Source: a bacterium (GTDB taxonomy: Bacteria > UBP6 > UBA1177). Taken from it: a stretch of 45,535 bases of DNA. The stretch covers positions 1 through 45,535 of the forward strand of contig JAEESW010000016.1 in assembly GCA_016290135.1 (NCBI GenBank), read 5' to 3'. The notes beneath the pieces were generated by a model that was not told where the DNA came from, ran no database searches, and saw only the letters and a list, made by a program, of their open reading frames with translations. Below are positions 1,414 to 45,048 of the stretch, one piece after another (position 1 is the stretch's first letter; every line of letters begins with the position of its first letter). The position numbers and the translations under genes are program-made.

Positions 1414-1785
1414 TTACTTAATCTCTATCTCAGCACCAGCTGCAACGAGTTTTTCTTTGATTGCTTCTGCGTCTGCTTTAGAAACGCCTTCTTTTACAAC
1501 GCCGTGGCCTTCAACGAGGTCTTTAGCTTCTTTGAGGCCGAGACCGGTGATCGCGCGGACTTCTTTGATGACGTTGAGTTTGTTTGCGCCTTCCGATTTA
1601 AGAACTACGTCAAATTCGGTCTTTTCTTCTGCCGGAGCAGCAGCGCCGCCAGCAACAGGACCAGCTGCAACAGCTACAGGAGCAGCTGCGCTTACGCCGA
1701 GTTCTTCTTCGAGTTCTTTAATAAGTTCCGAAAGTTCAAGGACGGTCATTCCTTTGATGAATTCTTTTACTTCTTCTTTTGTCAT
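1414..1785 (-). CDS. rplL: 50S ribosomal protein L7/L12
   Basis: This is the flexible stalk protein of the large subunit, which recruits translation GTPases such as the EF-G and EF-Tu encoded further up the same cluster. At 123 residues it has the usual length. The N-terminal dimerisation helix (about 1-35) is followed by an Ala/Pro/Val-rich hinge (about 36-55) and the compact C-terminal domain with [24 protein letters not shown]. An upstream in-frame ATG at 1797 exists, but its bases are part of the GGAG ribosome-binding site that serves the ATG at 1785, so I chose 1785. It is co-transcribed with rplJ, 33 bases upstream. Confidence 0.97.
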
Positions 1786-1818
1786 TGTTTTCTCCATAAA
1801 ACAAAAAATTAATAAAAA

Positions 1819-2340
1819 TTAAGCCTGTTCAAGTTTGTCTTTGTATGCAGCAAGCAAGCGTACGAAAGTCTGCGGAACAGCGTTAAGCAGCCGCACGAAA
1901 TTCTGAGGAACAGCAAGCATTGTTGCAAGCAGCTTCGCCTGAAGCTCTTCTTTGCTCGGAAGGTCTGCGAGGACTTCCACTTCTTTCGCCGTGAGGATTT
2001 TTCCATCCAATGCGCCGGCTTTTACAACGATGCGCTCGTCTTTTTTCGCGATCTTTTTGACGACTTTTGCACCGCTGACCTGATCTCCCATCGTAAGTAC
2101 GAGGGCTGTCATTCCCGAAAGGAAAGGAACGATTCCTTCATACGAGGTTCCTTCCACTGCGTGTTTCGCAAGAGTGTTCTTTACGACAAGCAGTCTGACC
2201 TGCTCTTTTGCGCACTCTTTACGGAAAGGAGTGAAAGTCTCCATGTTTACTCCGTTGAAATCAATTACAACGCATGACGAAGCTTTGGAAAGTGCATCTT
2301 TGATCTCCTCGATGATCTGTTGTTTTTTGCTTTTTTCCAT
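1819..2340 (-). CDS. rplJ: 50S ribosomal protein L10
   Basis: L10 anchors the L7/L12 stalk to 23S rRNA. The 173-residue product has the typical N-terminal domain (KKQQIIEEIKDALSKASSCVVIDFNGVN, written here in two parts: KKQQIIEEIKDALSKA and SSCVVIDFNGVN), the VRLLVVKNTLAKHA motif and a C-terminal helix rich in Leu that carries L7/L12 dimers. Its ATG at 2340 follows a GGAG site. The 112 bases between rplA and rplJ contain a conserved L10-type leader RNA, so translation of rplJ and rplL is probably repressed by the L10(L12)4 complex. Confidence 0.97.
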   Translation of the reverse strand: MEKSKKQQIIEEIKDALSKASSCVVIDFNGVNMETFTPFRKECAKEQVRLLVVKNTLAKHAVEGTSYEGIVPFLSGMTALVLTMGDQVSGAKVVKKIAKKDERIVVKAGALDGKILTAKEVEVLADLPSKEELQAKLLATMLAVPQNFVRLLNAVPQTFVRLLAAYKDKLEQA

Positions 2341-2359
2341 TAAGCAACTCCATCAATTT

Positions 2360-2440
2360 ACTTCTGGTCATCGAAGAACAATGACAGGTCTCAGACAGGA
2401 AATTAAGCCCTTAGGCACCCGACTTCTACGACCAGAAACG
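2360..2440 (-). promoter_or_regulatory. L10 autoregulatory leader RNA
   Basis: On the minus strand the sequence CTGGTCGTAGAAG (2435-2423) pairs with CTTCGATGACCAG (2376-2364) to form a long outer stem with one mismatch. The stem encloses conserved-looking internal sequence including GGTGCCTAAGG, TTAATTTCCTGTC and TGAGACCTGTC. This arrangement matches what I know of the L10 leader family, where the L10-L12 complex binds and represses rplJ-rplL. It lies immediately upstream of the rplJ ribosome-binding site. Covariance-model scoring was not possible. Confidence 0.85.
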
Positions 2441-2452
2441 ATTATTAAAAAA

Positions 2453-3160
2453 CTACTTAGCCTCGTTGACGAGAGCTGATTCATCAAGTTTGAGTCCAGG
2501 TCCCATCGTGCAGGATATCGTGACTTTCTTGATGAATGCGCCTTTTGCCGTTGCCGGTTTAAGCTTCTGAAGGTCTTTGATAAATTCAACAACGTTGTCG
2601 TAGATTTTATCAGGACCGAAACTGAGCTTGCCGACCATGCAGCAAAGGACACCGGCTTTGTTGACTTTAAATTCAACACGACCGGCTTTTACAAGTTTGA
2701 TCGCCGCGGTAATGTCATTGTTGACAGTTCCGAGTTTCGGGTTCGGCATCAAACCTTTTCTTCCGAGAACCTTACCGAGTTTACCGATCTTGCCCATCAT
2801 TGCCGGGATCGTGACCAATTTGTCGAAATCGGTCCATTCTTCCTGCATGATTTTGTCGATAAGCTCTTCACTGCCGTAAAAATCAGCACCGGCGTTCTTA
2901 GCCTGTTCGACCATATCTGCCGGAACGATCGCGCAAACTTTTACGACTTTGCCGACACCGTGAGGGAATACGGTGGCGCCGCGGACCATCTGATCCGATT
3001 TCTTTGCGTTGATACCGAGGTTGACTGCAAGTTCAACCGTCTCATCAAATTTTTTCGATGCGCTTTTCTGAAGGATCGTTACAGCTTCCTGAACGGAATA
3101 CTTAACATTCCTGTCGAAATTTTTAGCTGCATCTGTAAGTCTTTTTCCACAAGCTGCCAT
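2453..3160 (-). CDS. rplA: 50S ribosomal protein L1
   Basis: L1 forms the mobile L1 stalk that helps release E-site tRNA, and in many bacteria it represses its own operon. The protein is 235 residues, full length. It carries the signature NPKLGTVNNDITAAIKLVKAG together with GRKGLMPNPK (about 150) and the final block KKVTISCTMGPGLKLDES. The ATG at 3160 follows a strong AGGAGG ribosome-binding site. It starts ten bases after the rplK stop, so rplK and rplA form the classical L11 operon. The rplJ leader follows directly. Confidence 0.97.
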   Translation of the reverse strand: MAACGKRLTDAAKNFDRNVKYSVQEAVTILQKSASKKFDETVELAVNLGINAKKSDQMVRGATVFPHGVGKVVKVCAIVPADMVEQAKNAGADFYGSEELIDKIMQEEWTDFDKLVTIPAMMGKIGKLGKVLGRKGLMPNPKLGTVNNDITAAIKLVKAGRVEFKVNKAGVLCCMVGKLSFGPDKIYDNVVEFIKDLQKLKPATAKGAFIKKVTISCTMGPGLKLDESALVNEAK

Positions 3161-3170
3161 TTTTCCCTCC

Positions 3171-3593
3171 TTACTCTACGGTGATGCCCATGCTGCGGGC
3201 AGTTCCGATGATAATTTGTTTTGCAGCTTCAAGATCTGTCGTGTTGAGGTCGACAAGTTTCATCTTTGCGATCTCAGCGATCTGATCCATCTTCAAAGAA
3301 CCGATTTTCTTTTTGTTGGGCTCCCCGGATCCTTTACTCTTGTCAAGTGCTTTCATAAGCAGCTGGGAAGCAGGCGGAGTTTTTGTAACAAACGTGAAAG
3401 ATCTGTCAGCGAAGATCGTGATGACGACAGGAATTACATAACCTTTCTGTTCCTGTGTCCTTGCGTTGAACGCTTTGCAGAACTCCATGATGTTTACGCC
3501 GTGCTGTCCGAGCGCAGGACCAACGGGAGGAGCCGGATTTGCTGCCGCTGCAGGAATCTGCAACTTTACGTTTGCGACTACTTTCTTAGCCAT
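3171..3593 (-). CDS. rplK: 50S ribosomal protein L11
   Basis: L11 is part of the GTPase-associated centre and is needed for RelA-type sensing of uncharged tRNA. The 140-residue product has the usual beginning ([20 protein letters not shown]), the [18 protein letters not shown] block, and the C-terminal rRNA-binding domain ending [11 protein letters not shown]. The spacing fits an operon with nusG (21 bases upstream) and rplA (10 bases downstream). The ribosome-binding site is GAGGAG. Confidence 0.98.
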
Positions 3594-3614
3594 TGTTTTA
3601 CTCCTCTAAAATTG

Positions 3615-4187
3615 TTAATCCTCAATCTTCTCAACCTGTGAGAAGTTAAGCTCGACGGGTGTAGAACGCCCAAAAATATTAACCAAAACTTCCAATTTTT
3701 CTTTTCCTTCCTTCACATCGTCGATAACGGCTTTGAAACCTGCGAAAGGACCGTCTTTAATGAGGATCATCTCGCCTTTTTCGTACATCGTGGAGGAAGA
3801 TCCGGAAACCTCGCCCTCTTCAAGCATTCTCTTGATCTTTTGGATCTCGGCTTCCGTAATGACCATAGGCATTGCGAAACTCTGTTTCTGTTTCGCAGTC
3901 TGAAATCTTTTCTTTTCTCCTATGAAAAGCGGTTTTCTTGAAAAGGGGACCTCTTTCACAAGAAGAAGAGCGTCTTCAGAGAACTCCATCTGAATAAAAA
4001 TATAACCCGGATAGAGATTCTTCTTGACGATTTTTGTTTTGCCGTCTTTTTTGTCTTCTATTTCGACTTCGGGAACGATGATCTCGCCGAATGAAGCCTG
4101 CATTCCCTTCTTCGCGATCAACTGTTCGATCGCATTCTTCAGTTTGCTTTCGTCACCAGTCTGGGTGTGAATTGCATACCATTTCAT
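3615..4187 (-). CDS. nusG: Transcription termination/antitermination protein NusG
   Basis: NusG binds the beta-prime clamp of RNA polymerase, increases processivity and links polymerase to Rho or to ribosomal protein S10. The 190-residue product has the NGN domain (MKWYAIHTQTGDE at the start, LYPGYIFIQM near residue 64) and a C-terminal KOW domain (IKDGPFAGFKAVIDDV near 145-160, then LVNIFGRSTPVEL). Its length is close to that of Escherichia coli NusG. It sits in the universal secE-nusG-rplK order. Confidence 0.97.
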   Translation of the reverse strand: MKWYAIHTQTGDESKLKNAIEQLIAKKGMQASFGEIIVPEVEIEDKKDGKTKIVKKNLYPGYIFIQMEFSEDALLLVKEVPFSRKPLFIGEKKRFQTAKQKQSFAMPMVITEAEIQKIKRMLEEGEVSGSSSTMYEKGEMILIKDGPFAGFKAVIDDVKEGKEKLEVLVNIFGRSTPVELNFSQVEKIED

Positions 4188-4202
4188 GGAAGACCGCCTG
4201 AC

Positions 4203-4586
4203 TTAGTAAATCAATCTGGAAAGATTCGACCAGATAAGATCGAAAACAACAAAGACTACCAGCATGATGCCGACAAACACGAAAACAGAAATCGTTGTGA
4301 CTTTTGTCTCTTCTTTGGTCGGAGTCACGACCTTTTTGAGTTCGTCGATCGCCTTGTTCAGTTCGTCAATATAAAAACCTTTTTTTCCTTTCCAAAAATA
4401 AAGAGTCGTTCCCGCTGCAAGAAGGAAACCGACAAGATTTTTCACCGGCAGGACCGAAAGCAGCTTGACATCAGCGATATCGATCGCTCTGATCCCGAGC
4501 AACGCATCGGAAGCCTGCGTCATGAAATACATAAGAATAAGGAAAAAAACTGTATAAAGCCCAAGGACTATCTTTCCGTTTTTCAT
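4203..4586 (-). CDS. secE: Preprotein translocase subunit SecE
   Basis: SecE clamps the SecY channel in the inner membrane. The start was placed at 4586 because a GAGGG ribosome-binding site precedes that ATG; longer in-frame options would run into the tRNA gene. The 127-residue protein has three hydrophobic segments (about 5-24, 43-63 and 93-113) and the conserved amphipathic stretch ELNKAIDELKKVVTPTKEET before the last helix. Three helices are the Escherichia coli form; many other bacteria have a one-helix SecE. It lies between trnW and nusG, a common arrangement. Confidence 0.93.
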   Translation of the reverse strand: MKNGKIVLGLYTVFFLILMYFMTQASDALLGIRAIDIADVKLLSVLPVKNLVGFLLAAGTTLYFWKGKKGFYIDELNKAIDELKKVVTPTKEETKVTTISVFVFVGIMLVVFVVFDLIWSNLSRLIY

Positions 4587-38477: not shown

Positions 38478-38552
38478 GATTCACCCCCGCAAACAGATTT
38501 CGGGCGGCATTTTAATAAAACTGAGGAAAAATTCAATAAATATCAGTTTTTG

Positions 38553-38630
38553 ATTGGATTATTTTACGTTAAACGAATAGATGCCTTCCCATCCGGCTGC
38601 GATGTAAATTTTTCCGTCGATAAGCTGCGG
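38553..38630 (-). repeat. Direct repeat copy 1 (left end of accessory region)
   Basis: These 78 bases match 44971-45048 in the same orientation at 69 of 78 positions without gaps. The match corresponds to the 3' end of the beta-propeller gene at the right edge. Conserved blocks include ATTGGATTATTTTAC and GCCTTCCCATCCGGCTGCGA. Confidence 0.9.
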
Positions 38631-38663
38631 AGCCGCGTCATTAATCTTGCCTGTTTTCAACAT
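38559..38663 (-). pseudogene. Stranded 3' fragment of beta-propeller gene
   Basis: Read on the minus strand, the fragment encodes KTGKINDAAPQLIDGKIYI and then AAGWEGIYSFNVK before a stop. The intact gene at 44977-45535 ends SEPQLIDGKIYIAAGWEGV (then VSINVK). The fragment has lost the rest of its gene and has no ribosome-binding site, so it is a remnant. It lies in the 230-base gap upstream of the PP2C gene. Confidence 0.85.
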
Positions 38664-38707
38664 TTCAATAAAATAGCATGTTTTGTTAATTTTATACGGA
38701 GGCCGTC

Positions 38708-38857
38708 ATGCAGAAATCTTTACTATTTTTAATCGTATTCTTTTCTTTTGTGTCCATTTCTGCCGGCTGGAGAGAAGACCTCTGCGAAGATGTGACCTGT
38801 TCCGGTCACGGTGAATGTCAGGAATCCGTTTGCACCTGGAGCAGAATATGGCTATGA
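38708..38857 (+). pseudogene. Truncated EGF-like secreted peptide
   Basis: An ATG behind a strong GGAGG site encodes 49 residues: a signal peptide (MQKSLLFLIVFFSFVSISAG) and then WREDLCEDVTCSGHGECQES, ending VCTW before out-of-frame codons. The C-x4-C-x5-C pattern with CSGHGEC is an EGF-like start that would normally continue with more cysteines. The frame is cut short where the sequence joins the remnant of the 82-residue protein family at about 38835. It is probably a decayed gene, though a short secreted peptide could still be made. Confidence 0.65.
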
Positions 38858-38927
38858 CTCTACGACTTATGAGAAATTTCAGCAGGCTGGCTTCCCGCAA
38901 ACAAATGTAGATCCTGTTTTTGAATGA
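38835..38927 (+). pseudogene. Fragment of 82-residue tail-motif protein
   Basis: In frame with a TGA at 38925, these bases encode PGAEYGYDSTTYEKFQQAGF and then PQTNVDPVFE. The intact gene at 40713-40961 has PGAEYGYNSTTYEKWQQSGF and PQTNVDP at the same place. Of 27 shared residues 24 are identical, and most DNA differences are silent third-position changes, so both copies once were under protein-level selection. No start codon or ribosome-binding site remains. Confidence 0.8.
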
Positions 38928-38935
38928 GGTGAGTG

Positions 38936-39802
38936 ATGAAAAAAACGATAGTAGTTTCAATTGCAGTTTTTTCCGGAATCATTTGCGGAATTTTGTTGAT
39001 ATCCCACATTTTTTATTATTCCGAAATTGCTTCAGAAGCAAGCTGTCTTGTGCAAAGGAATGCGTCTTCCTGTTTGGCTGCAGCTCTGACAAAAATGATT
39101 GAAGGTAATTATGCCGATTCCTATCAATATGTTAACGAGGGATGTGTTTTGGGTGATGCGGAGTTGTGCAATACAAGCGGAGTAGTCTTAAGCGTAGGAT
39201 TGAACGGGTATTTTGATTATCTTTTTGCTTATGCGCTGTTTGATCACGGATGTGATTTAGGCAATAAAAAATCGTGCTCTGACAGAAAACTTCTGACTAT
39301 CGAAAAAGATGATATTCAAAATCTCATAGAAAATTGTAAAAACAATAATAATCCTGTTTTTTGCCGGAAAGCAGGAGAACATTTTTTTTATTCAAAAGAA
39401 GATCACGAAAGAAAAAAAGCTTTAGAGTTTTTGAAACCGGCATGCAGTCAATTAAAAGATTTTTCATGCGCCATGCTTTCGATAATGTTTTCAGAAGATG
39501 GGGATCAAATCAATGCCAAACAAGTTTATGATCAGTTTACCACAAAGGATTTTCCGTTTTCAAACCACGAAACATTTCTTGAAATAAAAGCAGCTTTCAT
39601 GCTCGGAAACGAGGACAAAACAGAAAAGCTTATCATCGAAAAAACAAATGAAAAACCGCAGCTCGTAATAGTGATTTTAAAAGATCCTGTCTTAAAAAAG
39701 ACTGCCGAAAACAAACGCTTGCATGAGCATTATCTGTCTTTGCTGAGAGCATTGAAACAAAAAAACGAAAGCTGTCTGATCAGTGAAGGAGGCGTGCAAT
39801 GA
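38936..39802 (+). CDS. Membrane-anchored Cys-rich Sel1-like protein, unknown function
   Basis: The 288-residue protein has one N-terminal hydrophobic segment (MKKTIVVSIAVFSGIICGIL) and then about a dozen cysteines in a repeated helical pattern: GCVLGDAELC, DHGCDLGNKKSC, and a later ACSQLKDFSC. This resembles the disulfide-linked Sel1-like repeats of Helicobacter Hcp proteins, suggesting a solvent-exposed oxidised domain outside the inner membrane. I do not recognise the precise family. The start is ATG 38936 with GAGG at six bases; a GTG three bases earlier is possible. It overlaps the next gene (ATGA). Confidence 0.75.
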   Translation: MKKTIVVSIAVFSGIICGILLISHIFYYSEIASEASCLVQRNASSCLAAALTKMIEGNYADSYQYVNEGCVLGDAELCNTSGVVLSVGLNGYFDYLFAYALFDHGCDLGNKKSCSDRKLLTIEKDDIQNLIENCKNNNNPVFCRKAGEHFFYSKEDHERKKALEFLKPACSQLKDFSCAMLSIMFSEDGDQINAKQVYDQFTTKDFPFSNHETFLEIKAAFMLGNEDKTEKLIIEKTNEKPQLVIVILKDPVLKKTAENKRLHEHYLSLLRALKQKNESCLISEGGVQ

Positions 39803-40713
39803 AAAAATCGGCATTTATTCCGGTTTTGCGGCGTGTTGCATTGTTTGCGCTGATTTTTATTGTATCGTTTGCTCTCTCGGTAATAATTTTCATTGCGAAA
39901 TCTGACTCTTTCTGCTCTTTAGGAATAAAGACTGCATGTGAAACATATTTGGTATCTGCTAAATGGATAGAACCGGATTTCTGCGGTCTTGACAACGGAA
40001 ATATGAATTTTTTGGGTTTTCTCTTTGCGAAAAATTATGAACAGCAGAAAAAATGTCTGGAACATTCGTGCAGATATGAAAATCCGGCGGCATGTTACTA
40101 TTTTGCTATGGATCAGAGAGGAAGCGGAATGGATGTGAAAGATATTTTCGTTTCTTCCTGCAAAAAGGGAGGAGTCGTTGCAGCGTGTTATGAAGCCGGA
40201 GAAGAATTTTTGAAAACCGGAGATAAAATCAAAGCCTCGGAATATTTTTTGAAGGCATGTGACCGTGGACACTTACGCTCATGCCTCATGGCTGCATCAA
40301 ATTCCGATTCAGATGAAATTTTCAATAAATCAGCCGATATAATCAAAGATAAAATGTTGGGTTTTGTCAGCAATTTCACATTGAATATCAGCGATAAAAA
40401 CGGAGAGACTGTAAAAAAAGAAATCCCTCCGGAGCAGAGATTAAAAATTCTGGATAACGAATTTGCGCTTCTCTGGCCGGAAGCCGCAGTATTATTTTCT
40501 CATATCGGAAGTTCCAAAAAAACTCTTCACTATCTTGAAAAAACGGTAAAAACCGACAAATATGATCTCTATCGGATATTGTCCAACAGCCGTTGGAACT
40601 GCAAAGATAAAGCCTGTTCCTCTATAATACTGAAAACTTTGAAGGATATTGACGCAGAAATAAATTTTTATGAAAAAGAACTGGTAGAAATGGCACCCAA
40701 AACGGAGCAATAA
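39799..40713 (+). CDS. Second membrane-anchored Cys-rich Sel1-like protein
   Basis: The 304-residue product has one N-terminal transmembrane segment (about 12-34) and cysteine-spaced Sel1-like helical repeats: CLEHSCRYENPAACYYFA, SCKKGGVVAACYEAGEEFLK and KACDRGHLRSCLMAAS. A final helical domain holds four more residues of the Cys set (NCKDKAC). It is a distant relative of the preceding gene and is coupled to it by a four-base overlap. It also overlaps the next small gene by one base (TAATG). Function unknown. Confidence 0.75.
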   Translation: MKKSAFIPVLRRVALFALIFIVSFALSVIIFIAKSDSFCSLGIKTACETYLVSAKWIEPDFCGLDNGNMNFLGFLFAKNYEQQKKCLEHSCRYENPAACYYFAMDQRGSGMDVKDIFVSSCKKGGVVAACYEAGEEFLKTGDKIKASEYFLKACDRGHLRSCLMAASNSDSDEIFNKSADIIKDKMLGFVSNFTLNISDKNGETVKKEIPPEQRLKILDNEFALLWPEAAVLFSHIGSSKKTLHYLEKTVKTDKYDLYRILSNSRWNCKDKACSSIILKTLKDIDAEINFYEKELVEMAPKTEQ

Positions 40714-40961
40714 TGATTTATAAAAATCCCTATTATGTGAACAAGGATCCGTTGAAAGCAATTTTCTTTGATGGGAACGATGGTTCTGGAAGACCAATGA
40801 TTTACAGAAACCCGTTTGTCCCCGGTGCAGAATACGGATACAACTCTACAACCTACGAAAAGTGGCAACAATCTGGCTTCCCGCAAACGAATGTTGATCC
40901 ATATTCAAATTTGCAACAGGGTGGTTTTATTCAAACGAATGTTGACCCGTATTGGTATTAG
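40713..40961 (+). CDS. Small 82-residue protein with duplicated C-terminal motif, unknown
   Basis: The protein MIYKNPYYVNKDPLKAIFF... is aromatic-rich, with no signal peptide and no cysteine. Its end holds two related units, QQSGFPQTNVDPYSNL and QQGGFIQTNVDPYWY. A pair of similar segments, MIYKNPYYV and MIYRNPFVP, also suggests internal duplication in the first half. It is translationally coupled to the Sel1-like gene upstream. A truncated relative occurs at 38835-38927 and an apparent deletion scar of another copy at 43493-43516, so it is a cassette that has been copied within this island. Confidence 0.7.
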   Translation: MIYKNPYYVNKDPLKAIFFDGNDGSGRPMIYRNPFVPGAEYGYNSTTYEKWQQSGFPQTNVDPYSNLQQGGFIQTNVDPYWY

Positions 40962-40970
40962 GAGATTGAA

Positions 40971-42197
40971 ATGAAAAAGCTAATATTTTTATCGTTCTTA
41001 ACTCTATTTTTAGTTTCTTGCACAACCAAAAGCGGCGAAAATCTGATTAAAGCAGTTAAAGCCGACGATTTTGAAAAAGTTAAAAGAATAGTTACTGCCG
41101 AAAATGTGAATTCTACTGATGAAACGGGTGGAACCCCTGCGATTTGGGCTGCATATAACGGCAATGTTGAAATCCTTGATTTTCTGGCCAAAAACGGAGC
41201 TGATGTCAGAAAAAAAGGATTAATAGGCATCAATACGGATAAATTTCCCAAAATTTACGACACTACTTTGAGTGCCGCTGCCGGGGAAGGTCATCTTGGA
41301 ATAGTCAGATATTTAATCGAAAAAGCCGGACTTTCACCGGATGAAAAAGGTGATTGCGGCAATAATTTTTTTCCGTTGCCTCAGGATTTGAAAACAACGG
41401 AAGGGCTTGTCAAATTCATACAAAGGTCTCACGGGAAAATTTTTGACCTTTTTAAAGAACATGAAGGATATGAAAATTTTGTGAATTCAGCAGACGAAAT
41501 ACTTCCATATAACTTCAGCTGGATCGTAGGAGATTTGATGTACAGTAAAGATTTTGTCAACGAAGTTCCTGATGAATATGCTGTCAGACGGATTATCAAC
41601 AACAGGAAAGAGTTCGACAAAGTGTTTGCAAAGTTCGTCAAGCCGATGGAAAGTTATGAATTTATAAAAGAAATGGATATGTCAACTCCGCTTTCTTCGG
41701 CCGTTTTCTACAAAAGAACTGAAGTGATACGCGAATTGATTTCCAAAGATGCAGATGTTAATTTTAAAGATTGTTTCGGGATCACACCTCTTAGAAGTGC
41801 TGCTATCGCGAGGAACTTTGAAGGAATGATTATTCTGCTCAAGAACGGGGCATTGAACTATACTTATAAAAATATGCTTAATGAAGATGAGTCTATTTTA
41901 GACACGCTTATGACCATCAGGTGTGATGCCGCAGAAATGCCTGAACTGAAAAATAATCTGAATGAAATTTTACCGATGCTTTGGCAGAGTGAGAAGGAGA
42001 TTGCCGACTCTAAATCCAGACTGTTGTACGCGTGTCAATGTCGTGACAAAGATCTTGTCAGGATTTTTATGGAGAACGGTGCCGATTATGGAAAAATTGT
42101 AATTGACGGCAAAACCTTGAAGGAAATATGTGCTAAATACGGTGTTGAAATCAAAGATGAGTGGTTGAAAAAGAGAGAATGGAAAACTAACCGATAA
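40971..42197 (+). CDS. Ankyrin-repeat lipoprotein (paralogue 1)
   Basis: The 408-residue product has a lipoprotein signal with lipobox LVSC (C17). Ankyrin-type repeats follow: GENLIKAVKADDFEKVKRIV, GGTPAIWAAYNGNVEILDFL, later PLSSAVFYKRTEVIRELISK, DVNFKDCFGITPLRSAA and a final one near FMENGADYGKI. The middle (about 130-235) is a divergent helical stretch. It ends with KEICAKYGVEIKDEWLKK, shared with the next gene. The ATG follows AGGAG. Ankyrin lipoproteins often bind partner proteins in the periplasm; an immunity-type role is possible but not shown. Confidence 0.85.
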   Translation: MKKLIFLSFLTLFLVSCTTKSGENLIKAVKADDFEKVKRIVTAENVNSTDETGGTPAIWAAYNGNVEILDFLAKNGADVRKKGLIGINTDKFPKIYDTTLSAAAGEGHLGIVRYLIEKAGLSPDEKGDCGNNFFPLPQDLKTTEGLVKFIQRSHGKIFDLFKEHEGYENFVNSADEILPYNFSWIVGDLMYSKDFVNEVPDEYAVRRIINNRKEFDKVFAKFVKPMESYEFIKEMDMSTPLSSAVFYKRTEVIRELISKDADVNFKDCFGITPLRSAAIARNFEGMIILLKNGALNYTYKNMLNEDESILDTLMTIRCDAAEMPELKNNLNEILPMLWQSEKEIADSKSRLLYACQCRDKDLVRIFMENGADYGKIVIDGKTLKEICAKYGVEIKDEWLKKREWKTNR

Positions 42198-42215
42198 TGT
42201 TTAGTGGAGATGTTG

Positions 42216-43496
42216 ATGAAAAACATAATAATTTCGATATTTTCTTTAATTTTAATTATTTCCTGTACATCAAGAAGCGGAGAAAATCTGATTGAAGCTG
42301 TCAAAAATGCAGATTTTGAAAAAGTCCAAAAAAACGTTACTGCAGAAAACGTAAATTCCACCGATGAAACAGGGGCTACCCCGGCAATGTGGGCGGCATA
42401 CAACGATGATGTGGAACTTCTTGATTTTCTCGTCAAAAACGGTGCAGACATCAGAAAAAGAGGAATAATCGGAATAAATCAAAAATATGTCCCCCGAACT
42501 TATACCAGTGCTCTTGGAGCTGCCGCCGGAGAAGGAAATCTCGAAACCGTAAAATATTTAATTGAGAAAGCGGGGGTTTCTCCTGACGAAAGAGGCGACT
42601 GTTTGAACTATTGGAATGTTTTGCCTAATGAAATCAAGACAATGGACGGAGTGCTTGAATTTTTGGAAAAATCAAATGATGAACTTTCAGAACTGATAAA
42701 ATCAAACGAACATTATGAATCCATAAAGCCGAAGGAATTAAAACCGAGCAAATCTCCAGTTTTTAACGACTTCCTGAAAGCAGCGAATGAAGCGGAACGA
42801 AGAGATGCCTTTGCAACCATTCTGAGCAATATTATTCTTGAAAAGGATTTGAACAATAGAGATGTCGATCCTTACGCGGTAAGAAGAATGGCTGCCAACA
42901 GAAGAGTTGTCGACGAAGTTCTGAAGGATTCCATAAGGAAAAAAGAGAGCTATGACTACAGGAAAAGTTCAGAAGGTGAACCTCCGGTTCTGACTGCTGT
43001 TTTCCGGCGTAAAAACAATGTCGTGGACTATCTCATCAGTCAAAAAGCCGATTTAAATGCTAAAGACTGCCGCGGTCTTACACCTGCAATGGCGGCAGCA
43101 ATGGCAAGCAATTACGACGGTTTGAAAAAACTTCTCGAAAACGGTGCAAAAGCGAACACCTATTGGAATCTTCGCAATCATAAGACAACCGTTTTAAGTC
43201 AGTTGATGACAATGTATTTTCACGGTGCTCGAACCGAAAAAGAGAGGGAAGGAATAAAAAAAGTCCTTCCGCTGCTCTGGAAAACAGAGCAGGATTTTGC
43301 TGAATCCATAGATGTTTTTCCTAATCCTCTGCTCAAACCTTGTCGCCTTAATACTCCGAACATAATTGAAATCTTTATGGAAAACGGAGCCGATTATTCA
43401 AAAATCAAAAATAACGGGAGAACTTTAAAAGAAATCTGCGCCGCCGACGGTGTTGAAATCAAAGACGAGTGGTTGAAGAAGAAAGAGCAGGAATGA
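42216..43496 (+). CDS. Ankyrin-repeat lipoprotein (paralogue 2)
   Basis: The 426-residue paralogue of the upstream gene has a lipobox IISC near residue 17 and the same N-terminal repeats (NSTDETGATPAMWAAYN, VELLDFLVKNGADIRKRG). The two proteins are most alike at both ends and differ in the middle, where this one has extra sequence (about 165-230). The start ATG 42216 has GGAG six bases upstream; a GTG at 42204 would lie in that site. Its stop overlaps the ATG of the deletion scar at 43493. A tandem duplication followed by central divergence is the simplest history. Confidence 0.85.
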   Translation: MKNIIISIFSLILIISCTSRSGENLIEAVKNADFEKVQKNVTAENVNSTDETGATPAMWAAYNDDVELLDFLVKNGADIRKRGIIGINQKYVPRTYTSALGAAAGEGNLETVKYLIEKAGVSPDERGDCLNYWNVLPNEIKTMDGVLEFLEKSNDELSELIKSNEHYESIKPKELKPSKSPVFNDFLKAANEAERRDAFATILSNIILEKDLNNRDVDPYAVRRMAANRRVVDEVLKDSIRKKESYDYRKSSEGEPPVLTAVFRRKNNVVDYLISQKADLNAKDCRGLTPAMAAAMASNYDGLKKLLENGAKANTYWNLRNHKTTVLSQLMTMYFHGARTEKEREGIKKVLPLLWKTEQDFAESIDVFPNPLLKPCRLNTPNIIEIFMENGADYSKIKNNGRTLKEICAADGVEIKDEWLKKKEQE

Positions 43497-43516
43497 TTTA
43501 TATTGGTATTAGGAGG
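43493..43516 (+). pseudogene. Apparent internal-deletion scar of the 82-residue gene
   Basis: The bases ATGATTTAT (matching the first nine of the gene at 40713) are fused directly to TATTGGTATTAGGAG (matching its last codons, stop and the following ribosome-binding site at 40949-40963), sharing a TAT at the join. The junction implies loss of nearly the whole gene by short-homology recombination, while the downstream ribosome-binding site was kept. Confidence 0.6.
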
Positions 43517-43521
43517 TAAAA

Positions 43522-44823
43522 ATGCGATTCATATTTATACTTTTAGTCTTGTTCTCATTTTTCACAGTTTTTGCCAACGGCGCAGCAATTGACGGTTCAA
43601 GCCTTACAAGAACCGGTAATATAGTCTATCTGCAAAAAGAAAATATCAAAATAGAGAAAGAAAGTATCTCCATTGTGTTTGTGAATGATGTTTTCAAGTT
43701 CAATGTCAGATACAGGCTGAAAAACAGTTCTGAAAAAGCGGAAAAAATCGATTATGCTTTTCCCGTTTTGTTTGAAGATATTCTCGAGAATGGTTATGTA
43801 AGTGATGATCCTGAGTTCAAAAAAGACAAAATCCGTAATTTTTCTGTAAAAATCAACGGTGCCAAGCAAAAAATGAAAGAACAGAAAATTCCAAGAGGTG
43901 AACCTAATAATATTTATTTTGTGTATTCGTTTGATTTCCCTGCAAAACAGAGCCTTGAAATCGAAGTAAATTATGAAGTTGATCCGTGGGGAGAAGTCTA
44001 TGAATACGGACCGTATACTCTATACGGGTTCATGCCTCGAAAAACAAAATATTCTATGTCCAACGCAAAATATTTCGGTTCAGGATCGGCAGACGAGCTT
44101 GAAATAAACATTGATATGACTGATTTGTTCCGTAACGGCGGAAAACTGTTGACACTTGAGCCGAGAATTTTCTCATTTGACAAGGCTGGAACATTCAAAT
44201 TCAAAGGAAAAAATTTCGATTTTTCCAAAAACAGTGAAATAGAAATAGAATACGATAATTCCTTAAGAAATTTGTGGGATCAGATTGTCGGGAGTCGTCT
44301 CACGACAAAAAACAAGATTAAAAGTGTTAAAGTTTCATCAGCGATATCGGGAACAAAAGCTGAAAATATGTTTGACGGAGATCCGGCGACAGCATGGTGT
44401 GCAAGCGGCAAAAACAACTGGATAGAAGTCAAAACCGAGAAGAGCAATATAAGATTTATCGCTGTTTTGAACGGCAACACAAAAAATGAAAAGACTTTGT
44501 CGGAAAACGGCAAGGTAAAATCTCTTGAAATCGAGTATAAAAATTGTTCAGCCATATTAGCATGGGACAAACCAGAAAATCCTATTGACTTTTTGAAAAC
44601 AGAAAAACAAAAGGGTGACAAATATCCGGAAGAAGCGGAGATCAGGCAAAGATACGAGATTATTCACGAAAAACCTATTTATTTTGATTATGACATCGTT
44701 TATCTAGGTGAACGCGACATGCCTCATTATGAAAACTGCACTCTCCGCTTCAAAGTGAAAGAGATACTCCCCGGCAGCAAATTCAAAAATGTGTGCATCT
44801 CGGAGATTTTTATTTTGGAATAA
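43522..44823 (+). CDS. Secreted protein with C-terminal NADase-type glycan-binding-like domain
   Basis: The 433-residue product has an N-terminal signal peptide (MRFIFILLVLFSFFTVFANG). Residues about 40-245 form a beta-rich domain I do not recognise (FKFNVRYRLKNSSEKAEKID, then LEIEVNYEVDPWGEVYEYGP). The C-terminal half (about 265-433) begins KSVKVSSAISGTKAENMFDG, DPATAWCASGKNNWIEVKTE, and continues FIAVLNGNTKNEKTLSENGK. This is the pattern of the discoidin-like domain seen in NADase-type glycan-binding proteins. The gene may use the ribosome-binding site left by the scar upstream. A role in binding surface carbohydrate is inferred. Confidence 0.75.
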   Translation: MRFIFILLVLFSFFTVFANGAAIDGSSLTRTGNIVYLQKENIKIEKESISIVFVNDVFKFNVRYRLKNSSEKAEKIDYAFPVLFEDILENGYVSDDPEFKKDKIRNFSVKINGAKQKMKEQKIPRGEPNNIYFVYSFDFPAKQSLEIEVNYEVDPWGEVYEYGPYTLYGFMPRKTKYSMSNAKYFGSGSADELEINIDMTDLFRNGGKLLTLEPRIFSFDKAGTFKFKGKNFDFSKNSEIEIEYDNSLRNLWDQIVGSRLTTKNKIKSVKVSSAISGTKAENMFDGDPATAWCASGKNNWIEVKTEKSNIRFIAVLNGNTKNEKTLSENGKVKSLEIEYKNCSAILAWDKPENPIDFLKTEKQKGDKYPEEAEIRQRYEIIHEKPIYFDYDIVYLGERDMPHYENCTLRFKVKEILPGSKFKNVCISEIFILE

Positions 44824-44900
44824 AATATAATGGTCAAGCATTTCTGGACAAAAAAATCCTCCGAAAAAGTGTTTTTCGATGTAGTTGTGAGCATCAACAT

Positions 44901-44946
44901 GACACACGCCCCCGCCCTGCGGGCACTCCCTCTGACTCAGAGGGAG
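44901..44946. repeat. GC-rich intergenic palindromic element
   Basis: Two adjacent hairpins lie in the 153-base gap between convergent genes: CCCGC-CCT-GCGGG (44911-44923) and CTCCCTCT-GACTC-AGAGGGAG (44926-44946). The G+C content is far above the neighbouring sequence. Such paired inverted repeats resemble dispersed intergenic (REP- or MITE-like) elements, and could also stop transcription. No long T run follows on either strand. Confidence 0.65.
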
Positions 44947-44970
44947 AATTTTGACTGTAAACTTGATTCT

Positions 44971-45048
44971 ATTGGATTATTTTACATTGATGGAAACGAC
45001 GCCTTCCCATCCGGCTGCGATATAAATTTTTCCATCGATAAGCTGCGG
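44971..45048 (-). repeat. Direct repeat copy 2 (right end of accessory region)
   Basis: This is the intact-gene copy of the 78-base repeat described at 38553-38630, covering the final codons and stop of the beta-propeller gene and a few bases downstream. The spacing between copies is about 6.4 kb. Confidence 0.9.

What the first reader, a model, noticed from the sequence alone, without database searches (positions are those of the whole stretch)
38835..43516. A small-protein cassette present as one intact copy, one truncated copy and one deletion scar
The 82-residue gene at 40713 has a 27-codon relative at 38835 with 24 identical residues and mostly silent DNA changes, and a scar at 43493-43516 joining its first nine bases to its last codons and ribosome-binding site. 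Its own sequence holds duplicated motifs (QTNVDPY twice, MIYKNP/MIYRNP). The pattern suggests a repeatedly copied module that spaces or punctuates the other genes of the island. I know no family like it.
Basis: partly seen in the sequence, partly recalled or inferred. Interest (0 to 1): 0.72.

Follow-up and report, generated by a model that had tools for sequence, protein, structure and literature searches.

The report
Disarmed toxin island keeping its immunity genes
The small gene is the detached tail end of a giant bacterial Rhs weapon protein; here almost the whole 8 kb weapon gene has been deleted, while a string of probable immunity genes, joined by copies of that tail, has been kept and placed at a new chromosomal site.

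Summary
The 82-residue ORF is not an independent small-protein family. It is the conserved C-terminal tail that follows the variable toxin domain of Rhs/YD-repeat proteins in a genus of rumen bacteria (labelled UBP6/UBA1177), found in 13 of 14 congeners. The 'truncated copy' at 38835 is a deletion scar: the leader, start and first 39 codons of a full-length (~2,700-codon) Rhs gene are fused at a 9-bp microhomology (TGTCAGGAA, 38816-38824) to the last ~36 codons of the tail. Two other species carry independent scars with other breakpoints. The genes left behind are probable immunity genes: relatives of three of the five directly follow intact Rhs toxins elsewhere, one at 86% identity. The island (38631-44970) is absent from the same site in seven congeners. 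Of 82 tail copies, about 50 stand free between immunity-like genes; in these the 5' half tracks the upstream gene and the 3' half the downstream gene. Free tails therefore look like recombination joints of immunity-gene arrays; their ends also carry the next gene's ribosome-binding site. Verdict: a new variant of known Rhs 'polyimmunity' arrays, not a new gene family. Function was not tested.

The parts
38553..38630 (.). left direct repeat: 3' end of the PQQ-like gene, native side of the insertion site
   Evidence: 88% identical to 44971-45048; contiguous with the PP2C gene in congeners
38669..38707 (+). leader and ribosome-binding site of an Rhs gene
   Evidence: homologous to the leader of the intact Rhs gene L042 and of the G007 scar L040
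38708..38857 (+). truncated Rhs N-terminus; first 39 codons (to 38824) genuine, then out of frame
   Evidence: same signal peptide + EDLCEDVTCSGHGECQE as the 2,700-aa Rhs proteins L041, L042, L047
38816..38824 (+). 9-bp microhomology TGTCAGGAA at the deletion junction
   Evidence: Rhs 5' homology ends at 38824 and tail homology starts at 38816 in blastn
38816..38927 (+). 3' part of the Rhs tail (the 'truncated copy')
   Evidence: tail profile columns 32-66, 63.6 bits
38936..39802 (+). probable immunity gene 1 (small membrane protein, Sel1-like cysteine pattern)
   Evidence: position; a homologue in tandem with a homologue of gene 2 in G011
39799..40713 (+). probable immunity gene 2 (TPR/Sel1-like)
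   Evidence: position; 56% identical homologue in G011
40971..42197 (+). probable immunity gene 3 (ankyrin lipoprotein)
   Evidence: 86% identical homologue directly follows an intact 951-aa Rhs frame in L055; Ank
42204..43496 (+). probable immunity gene 4 (ankyrin lipoprotein, paralogue of gene 3)
   Evidence: 46-47% identical to gene 3
43493..43516 (+). deletion scar of a tail: ATGATTTAT joined to the last codons and ribosome-binding site
43522..44823 (+). probable immunity gene 5 (DUF4424 / NADase-type discoidin-like)
   Evidence: 92% homologues after tail remnants in L040 and L049; distant homologues directly after intact Rhs in L044, L046
44926..44946 (+). terminator-like hairpin at the island's end
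   Evidence: consensus scan only, near chance rate
44971..45048 (.). right direct repeat: 3' end of the PQQ-like gene (minus strand)

Best explanation
The island is the disarmed remnant of an Rhs polymorphic-toxin locus. Shown by sequence: an Rhs gene's leader, start and first 39 codons are fused to its last codons at a 9-bp microhomology, so the toxin gene was removed; probable immunity genes were kept downstream; and the 82-residue ORF is an Rhs C-terminal tail without its Rhs body. Shown: the island sits at a site that is empty in related species. Supported by statistics: free tails are joints where arrays recombine, because the 5' half goes with the gene before and the 3' half with the gene after. 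Inferred: recombination between tails adds, removes and moves immunity genes; the tail keeps translation flowing from one gene to the next because its start overlaps the previous stop and its end carries the next gene's Shine-Dalgarno sequence; the cell profits by surviving relatives' Rhs toxins without paying for this one.
For: Tail on Rhs-core proteins in own genome and congeners. Rhs N-terminus at 38708 and microhomology junction. Two independent scars with other breakpoints, G007 L040 and G002 L150. Gene 3 homologue at 86% directly after an intact Rhs; 40 of 51 free tails have a neighbour from a family that also follows Rhs. Empty site in seven congeners. In free tails 5' class vs upstream family p=0.0002, vs downstream family p=0.93; 3' class vs downstream family p=0.0002; in Rhs-attached tails 5' class vs downstream family p=0.0002. 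Near-identical junctions in up to four species with different downstream genes; 0 of 19 same-upstream pairs share the downstream family. A/B chimeric tails seen only among free copies. Start/stop overlap or abutment in 27 of 35 and SD before 36 of 38 downstream genes.
Against: No expression, toxicity or immunity was measured. Immunity genes 1 and 2 were not found next to any Rhs gene; their G011 homologues stand in an island without tails. No within-genome homogenisation of tails (p=0.37), so recombination is not frequent enough to erase divergence. Tail classes were assigned by hand-written motifs and species are not independent, so p-values are guides. All genomes are MAGs, and Rhs loci break at contig ends.
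Confidence: 0.85

Rival explanations
1. An autonomous small-protein cassette that copies itself between genes and has its own function.
For: About 50 free copies, most with an open frame and a start overlapping the previous gene; same-junction free tails show pN/pS 0.24 at pS 0.71, as if the peptide were still selected.
Against: 31-32 copies are the C-termini of Rhs proteins, with matching toxin-immunity pairs; free copies occur mostly beside Rhs-linked gene families; at 38816 it is fused to an Rhs N-terminus.
Confidence: 0.05
2. Plain decay: the tails and scars are inert debris of Rhs pseudogenes, with no role in joining or translating the immunity genes.
For: Truncated copies, one in-frame stop (L012), one frameshift (L052) and the 24-bp scar exist.
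Against: Most free tails stay open; spacing to the next gene is the same as behind intact Rhs (+9, -13, -10, -7); codon-level conservation after detachment, although replacement by recombination with intact tails could also give this.
Confidence: 0.25
3. The retained genes are not immunity genes but other surface or defence genes that happen to travel with the tails.
For: Ankyrin, TPR/Sel1 and discoidin folds are generic; PADLOC gives only weak ankyrin-based hits.
Against: The same families sit directly behind intact Rhs genes, and toxin type and gene family go together (metallopeptidase-like toxin with WG lipoproteins, DUF5675-like toxin with gene-5 relatives, M15-like with family 6).
Confidence: 0.1

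Closest known systems
Rhs C-terminal displacement arrays (Jackson 2009, PMC2935791; bee-gut Rhs loci, PMC5727410 and PMC8125069)
   Same: Low-GC region with displaced Rhs fragments and their immunity genes; recombination through conserved sequence; C47/C11 of this genome look so.
   Different: Those orphans keep part of the Rhs core plus a toxin tip. In the window both core and toxin are gone and only the sequence behind the toxin remains; that conserved post-toxin tail is not described in the passages read.
Homo-/heterogeneous polyimmunity loci of polymorphic toxin systems (Zhang 2012, PMC3482391)
   Same: Several different immunity genes, including ankyrin ones, in a row without a toxin.
   Different: Here the route is visible: toxin excised at a microhomology, its leader and start kept, genes linked by tail copies.
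T6SS immunity gene arrays of Vibrio cholerae (Kirchberger 2017, PMC5361080)
   Same: Effector displaced, immunity kept; a short conserved region normally found downstream of effectors remains between immunity genes.
   Different: No T6SS sheath gene in the genomes searched; Rhs carries a signal peptide; the tail is coding, recombinant and in dispersed islands.
Integron cassette arrays (own knowledge)
   Same: Array of single genes separated by related sequences at which cassettes are exchanged.
   Different: No integrase in the island; the joint is a protein-coding ~200-bp sequence; the inferred route is homologous recombination.

Membership tests
Rhs/YD polymorphic toxin gene | RHS repeats and Rhs-associated core domain in the protein | tested here: not met
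   No core in the window; genome-wide TIGR03696 hits only on C11 and C47. The parent proteins meet it.
Rhs/YD polymorphic toxin gene | Variable toxin domain after the core | tested here: not met
   Absent from the window; present in parents, one with DUF5675 at 4.6e-9.
Rhs-derived C-terminal tail | Homology to the conserved C-terminus of Rhs proteins | tested here: met
   79% identity to the tail of an Rhs frame in the same genome; E=1.5e-34 in the search.
Polyimmunity locus | Several genes of immunity families in a row without toxin | tested here: met
   Relatives of genes 3, 4 and 5 follow intact Rhs toxins elsewhere; genes 1 and 2 by position only.
Polyimmunity locus | Genes neutralise cognate toxins | not testable with these tools
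   Needs a co-expression assay.
Rhs C-terminal displacement array | Core-plus-tip fragments downstream of an intact Rhs gene | tested here: not met
   Window has neither core nor tip; core-plus-tip fragments are present at C47/C11.
T6SS effector-immunity array | T6SS in the genome | tested here: not met
   VipB (PF05943) absent from 15 genomes, control positive.
Integron | Integrase gene with the array | tested here: not met
   No integrase among the island ORFs.

The most novel reading that the evidence does not exclude
An integrase-free, integron-like cassette system: the coding tail behind the toxin acts as a homologous-recombination joint and at the same time as a translational coupler, so that immunity genes are collected, shuffled and moved as translated cassettes, and whole toxin genes are repeatedly cut out while the array is kept. 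The free tail peptide itself may still be under selection.
Probability: 0.45. Interest if true: 0.75.

Novelty: new variant of a known kind. Interest (0 to 1): 0.6.

Why it matters
How arrays of orphan immunity genes arise and stay expressed after the weapon is lost is mostly inferred from gene order. Here the deletion junction, the retained leader and start, the empty chromosomal site and the recombinant joints are all readable, and three species show independent disarming events. It also shows an Rhs architecture with a conserved tail behind the toxin domain, in a poorly known rumen lineage, and gives markers (tail, N-terminus) for finding such islands.

Tried and rejected
Independent small-protein family: rejected by the Rhs C-terminal matches. 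Duplicated QTNVDPY as a local event: rejected, regular variant on intact Rhs. T6SS delivery: no VipB. Viral origin: no relative in viral contigs. Gene conversion homogenising tails within a genome: not seen, p=0.37. Site-specific right end: the repeat TGGTCAAGCATTTCTG..., present at this island's end and at other islands, occurs five times in the genome, also away from islands, and did not point to an element. Structure of the tail: AlphaFold model poor (mean pLDDT 52, pTM 0.25), so no fold search was run. Literature search for a known post-toxin Rhs tail gave nothing clear.

Full report
1. Observation. The 82-codon ORF at 40713-40961, the relative at 38835 (24 of 27 residues; 15 of 19 nucleotide differences in codons that keep their residue) and the 24-bp scar at 43493 are all in the sequence. 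The scar's 15-base half occurs twice in the window and never in 100 shuffles at up to one mismatch. No Pfam, NCBIfam or PADLOC model matches the 82 residues.

2. What the sequence is. A search of the window's own genome (2.47 Mb, 66 contigs, the window being the whole of contig 27) found 13 matches. Four lie at the end of Rhs-core proteins...YWMRNRYYHIDMHRFINQDPIGIWGD...DPSGL, then a variable region, then the tail. In relatives it occurs in 13 of 14 members of the genus, weakly in the family and order, and not in the more distant genomes sampled. A scan of 84,980 species genomes returned 23 loci, nearly all with rumen or other ruminant-gut MAG titles, some named UBP6. Of 82 copies in 26 loci, 31-32 (depending on the rule used) end an Rhs protein and 50-51 stand free. 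The conserved tail of intact Rhs proteins is about 110 residues with 12 invariant positions; the window's 82 residues are its last part with an extended end that also occurs on intact Rhs proteins. So the duplicated motifs are family features.

3. The 'truncated copy' is a toxin-gene deletion. Full-length Rhs proteins of congeners (open frames of 2,704-2,808 codons) start with a signal peptide followed by GWGEDLCEDVTCSGHGECQED.... The window ORF at 38708 starts MQKSLLFLIVFFSFVSISAGWREDLCEDVTCSGHGECQE and then runs into the tail out of frame. In blastn the Rhs 5' homology covers 38690-38824 and the tail homology begins at 38816, an overlap of nine bases, TGTCAGGAA. This is the signature of a deletion between short direct repeats that removed about 8 kb. 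Leader, start and 39 codons remain on one side, about 36 codons of tail on the other. Two other species carry comparable fusions with other breakpoints: G007 (L040, after about codon 21) and G002 (L150, after about codon 52). Recurrence argues against assembly error and for selection, or a mutational tendency, to remove the toxin while keeping what lies behind it. The window's own genome still holds other Rhs N-termini (C38, C28) and Rhs cores (C11, C47), so the species is not without Rhs genes.

4. What is kept. Five genes follow. Gene 3 (40971) has an 86% identical homologue directly behind an intact 951-aa Rhs frame in G002; gene 4 is its paralogue; relatives of gene 5 (43522) directly follow intact Rhs genes in G003 and G012, and 92% homologues follow tail remnants in G007 and G001. 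Genes 1 and 2 have homologues only in G011, in an island without tails, so their role rests on position. Across all arrays, 40 of 51 free tails have a neighbour from a family that also follows Rhs. Rhs variable domains pair with neighbour families: metallopeptidase-like domains (HELTH, HEFGH, HELGH motifs) with WG-repeat lipoproteins, a DUF5675 domain with gene-5 relatives, an M15-like domain (weak, E 0.029) with a small exported protein. These are the marks of toxin-immunity pairs; activity is inferred.

5. Insertion site. In seven congeners the PP2C-like gene and the PQQ-like gene that flank the island are adjacent; the window's two flanks overlap there by about 78 bases. The island 38631-44970 is thus an insertion flanked by 78-bp direct repeats (88% identical). 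G007 has a different insertion at the same place, a 995-aa restriction-modification-like gene (named from its sequence by eye), so the site may be a hotspot. How the island got there is not known.

6. Free tails as joints. Two 5' classes (A, B) and two 3' classes (next gene starting inside the tail, or after it) can be told apart. In Rhs-attached tails the 5' class goes with the downstream family (p=0.0002), as expected if toxin, tail and immunity gene travel together. In free tails that link is gone (p=0.93); the 5' class goes with the upstream family (p=0.0002) and the 3' class with the downstream family (p=0.0002). Closely matching upstream junctions occur in up to four species with different genes behind; of 19 pairs with the same upstream family none share the downstream family. 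AB and BA chimeras exist only among free tails, one of each. Simple displacement of a toxin would leave a tail that belongs to the gene behind it; the data need a further step, recombination inside the tail. I infer that tails are the sites at which array segments are joined. Against frequent exchange: no homogenisation within genomes (p=0.37).

7. Translation. Upstream stop and tail start overlap or abut in 27 of 35 cases; a Shine-Dalgarno-like sequence formed by the tail's end precedes 36 of 38 downstream genes, at the same spacings as behind intact Rhs. In the window GGAG lies a few bases before the ATG at 40713, and TATTAGGAG precedes gene 3. Same-junction free tails show pN/pS 0.24 at near-saturated pS: the peptide is conserved after detachment, or is renewed from intact tails. 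I cannot separate these.

8. Comparison. The kinds of system are known: displaced Rhs tips (PMC2935791), orphan immunity in bee-gut Rhs loci, V. cholerae immunity arrays with a short conserved region retained between immunity genes (PMC5361080) and polyimmunity loci with ankyrin immunity proteins (PMC3482391). New here: a conserved tail behind the toxin domain, tail-only remnants as recombinant joints, and a readable excision of the whole toxin gene with its start retained. Delivery is not by T6SS as far as VipB tells; the signal peptide suggests Sec export, later steps unknown.

9. Limits. All data are MAG sequences; classes and families were defined with simple rules; related species are not independent; nothing was tested at the bench.

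Noticed in passing
L097 (G007:C6), reverse complement 1468-4455; window site 38551-44971: The same intergenic site holds a different insertion in a congener, a 995-aa restriction-modification-like gene: possible defence hotspot.
   Followed up: partly
window 44831-44857: TGGTCAAGCATTTCTGGACAAAAAAAT at the island's right end recurs five times in the genome and at the ends of other islands (L012, L044, L049, L054, L057).
   Followed up: partly
L059 (NZ_JAFSNZ010000035.1): A contig filed under Methanobrevibacter sp. RGIG3316 carries several Rhs tails of this bacterial genus: likely mis-binned. Records RUG11946 and RUG12558 are labelled Spirochaetales.
   Followed up: no
L116 (G011:C19): An island of immunity-like genes (homologues of window genes 1 and 2, WG-repeat proteins) without any tail, beside an AAA ATPase gene.
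   Followed up: partly
L009, L011, L137, L138 (C47, C11, C38, C28): Rhs loci break at contig ends in this genome (C47 end, C11 start; N-termini running off C28 and C38), so its full Rhs complement is not assembled.
   Followed up: no
L041, L042, L047: The Rhs proteins carry an N-terminal signal peptide, EGF-like cysteine repeats and leucine-rich repeats, an unusual N-terminus for an Rhs toxin; export route unknown.
   Followed up: partly
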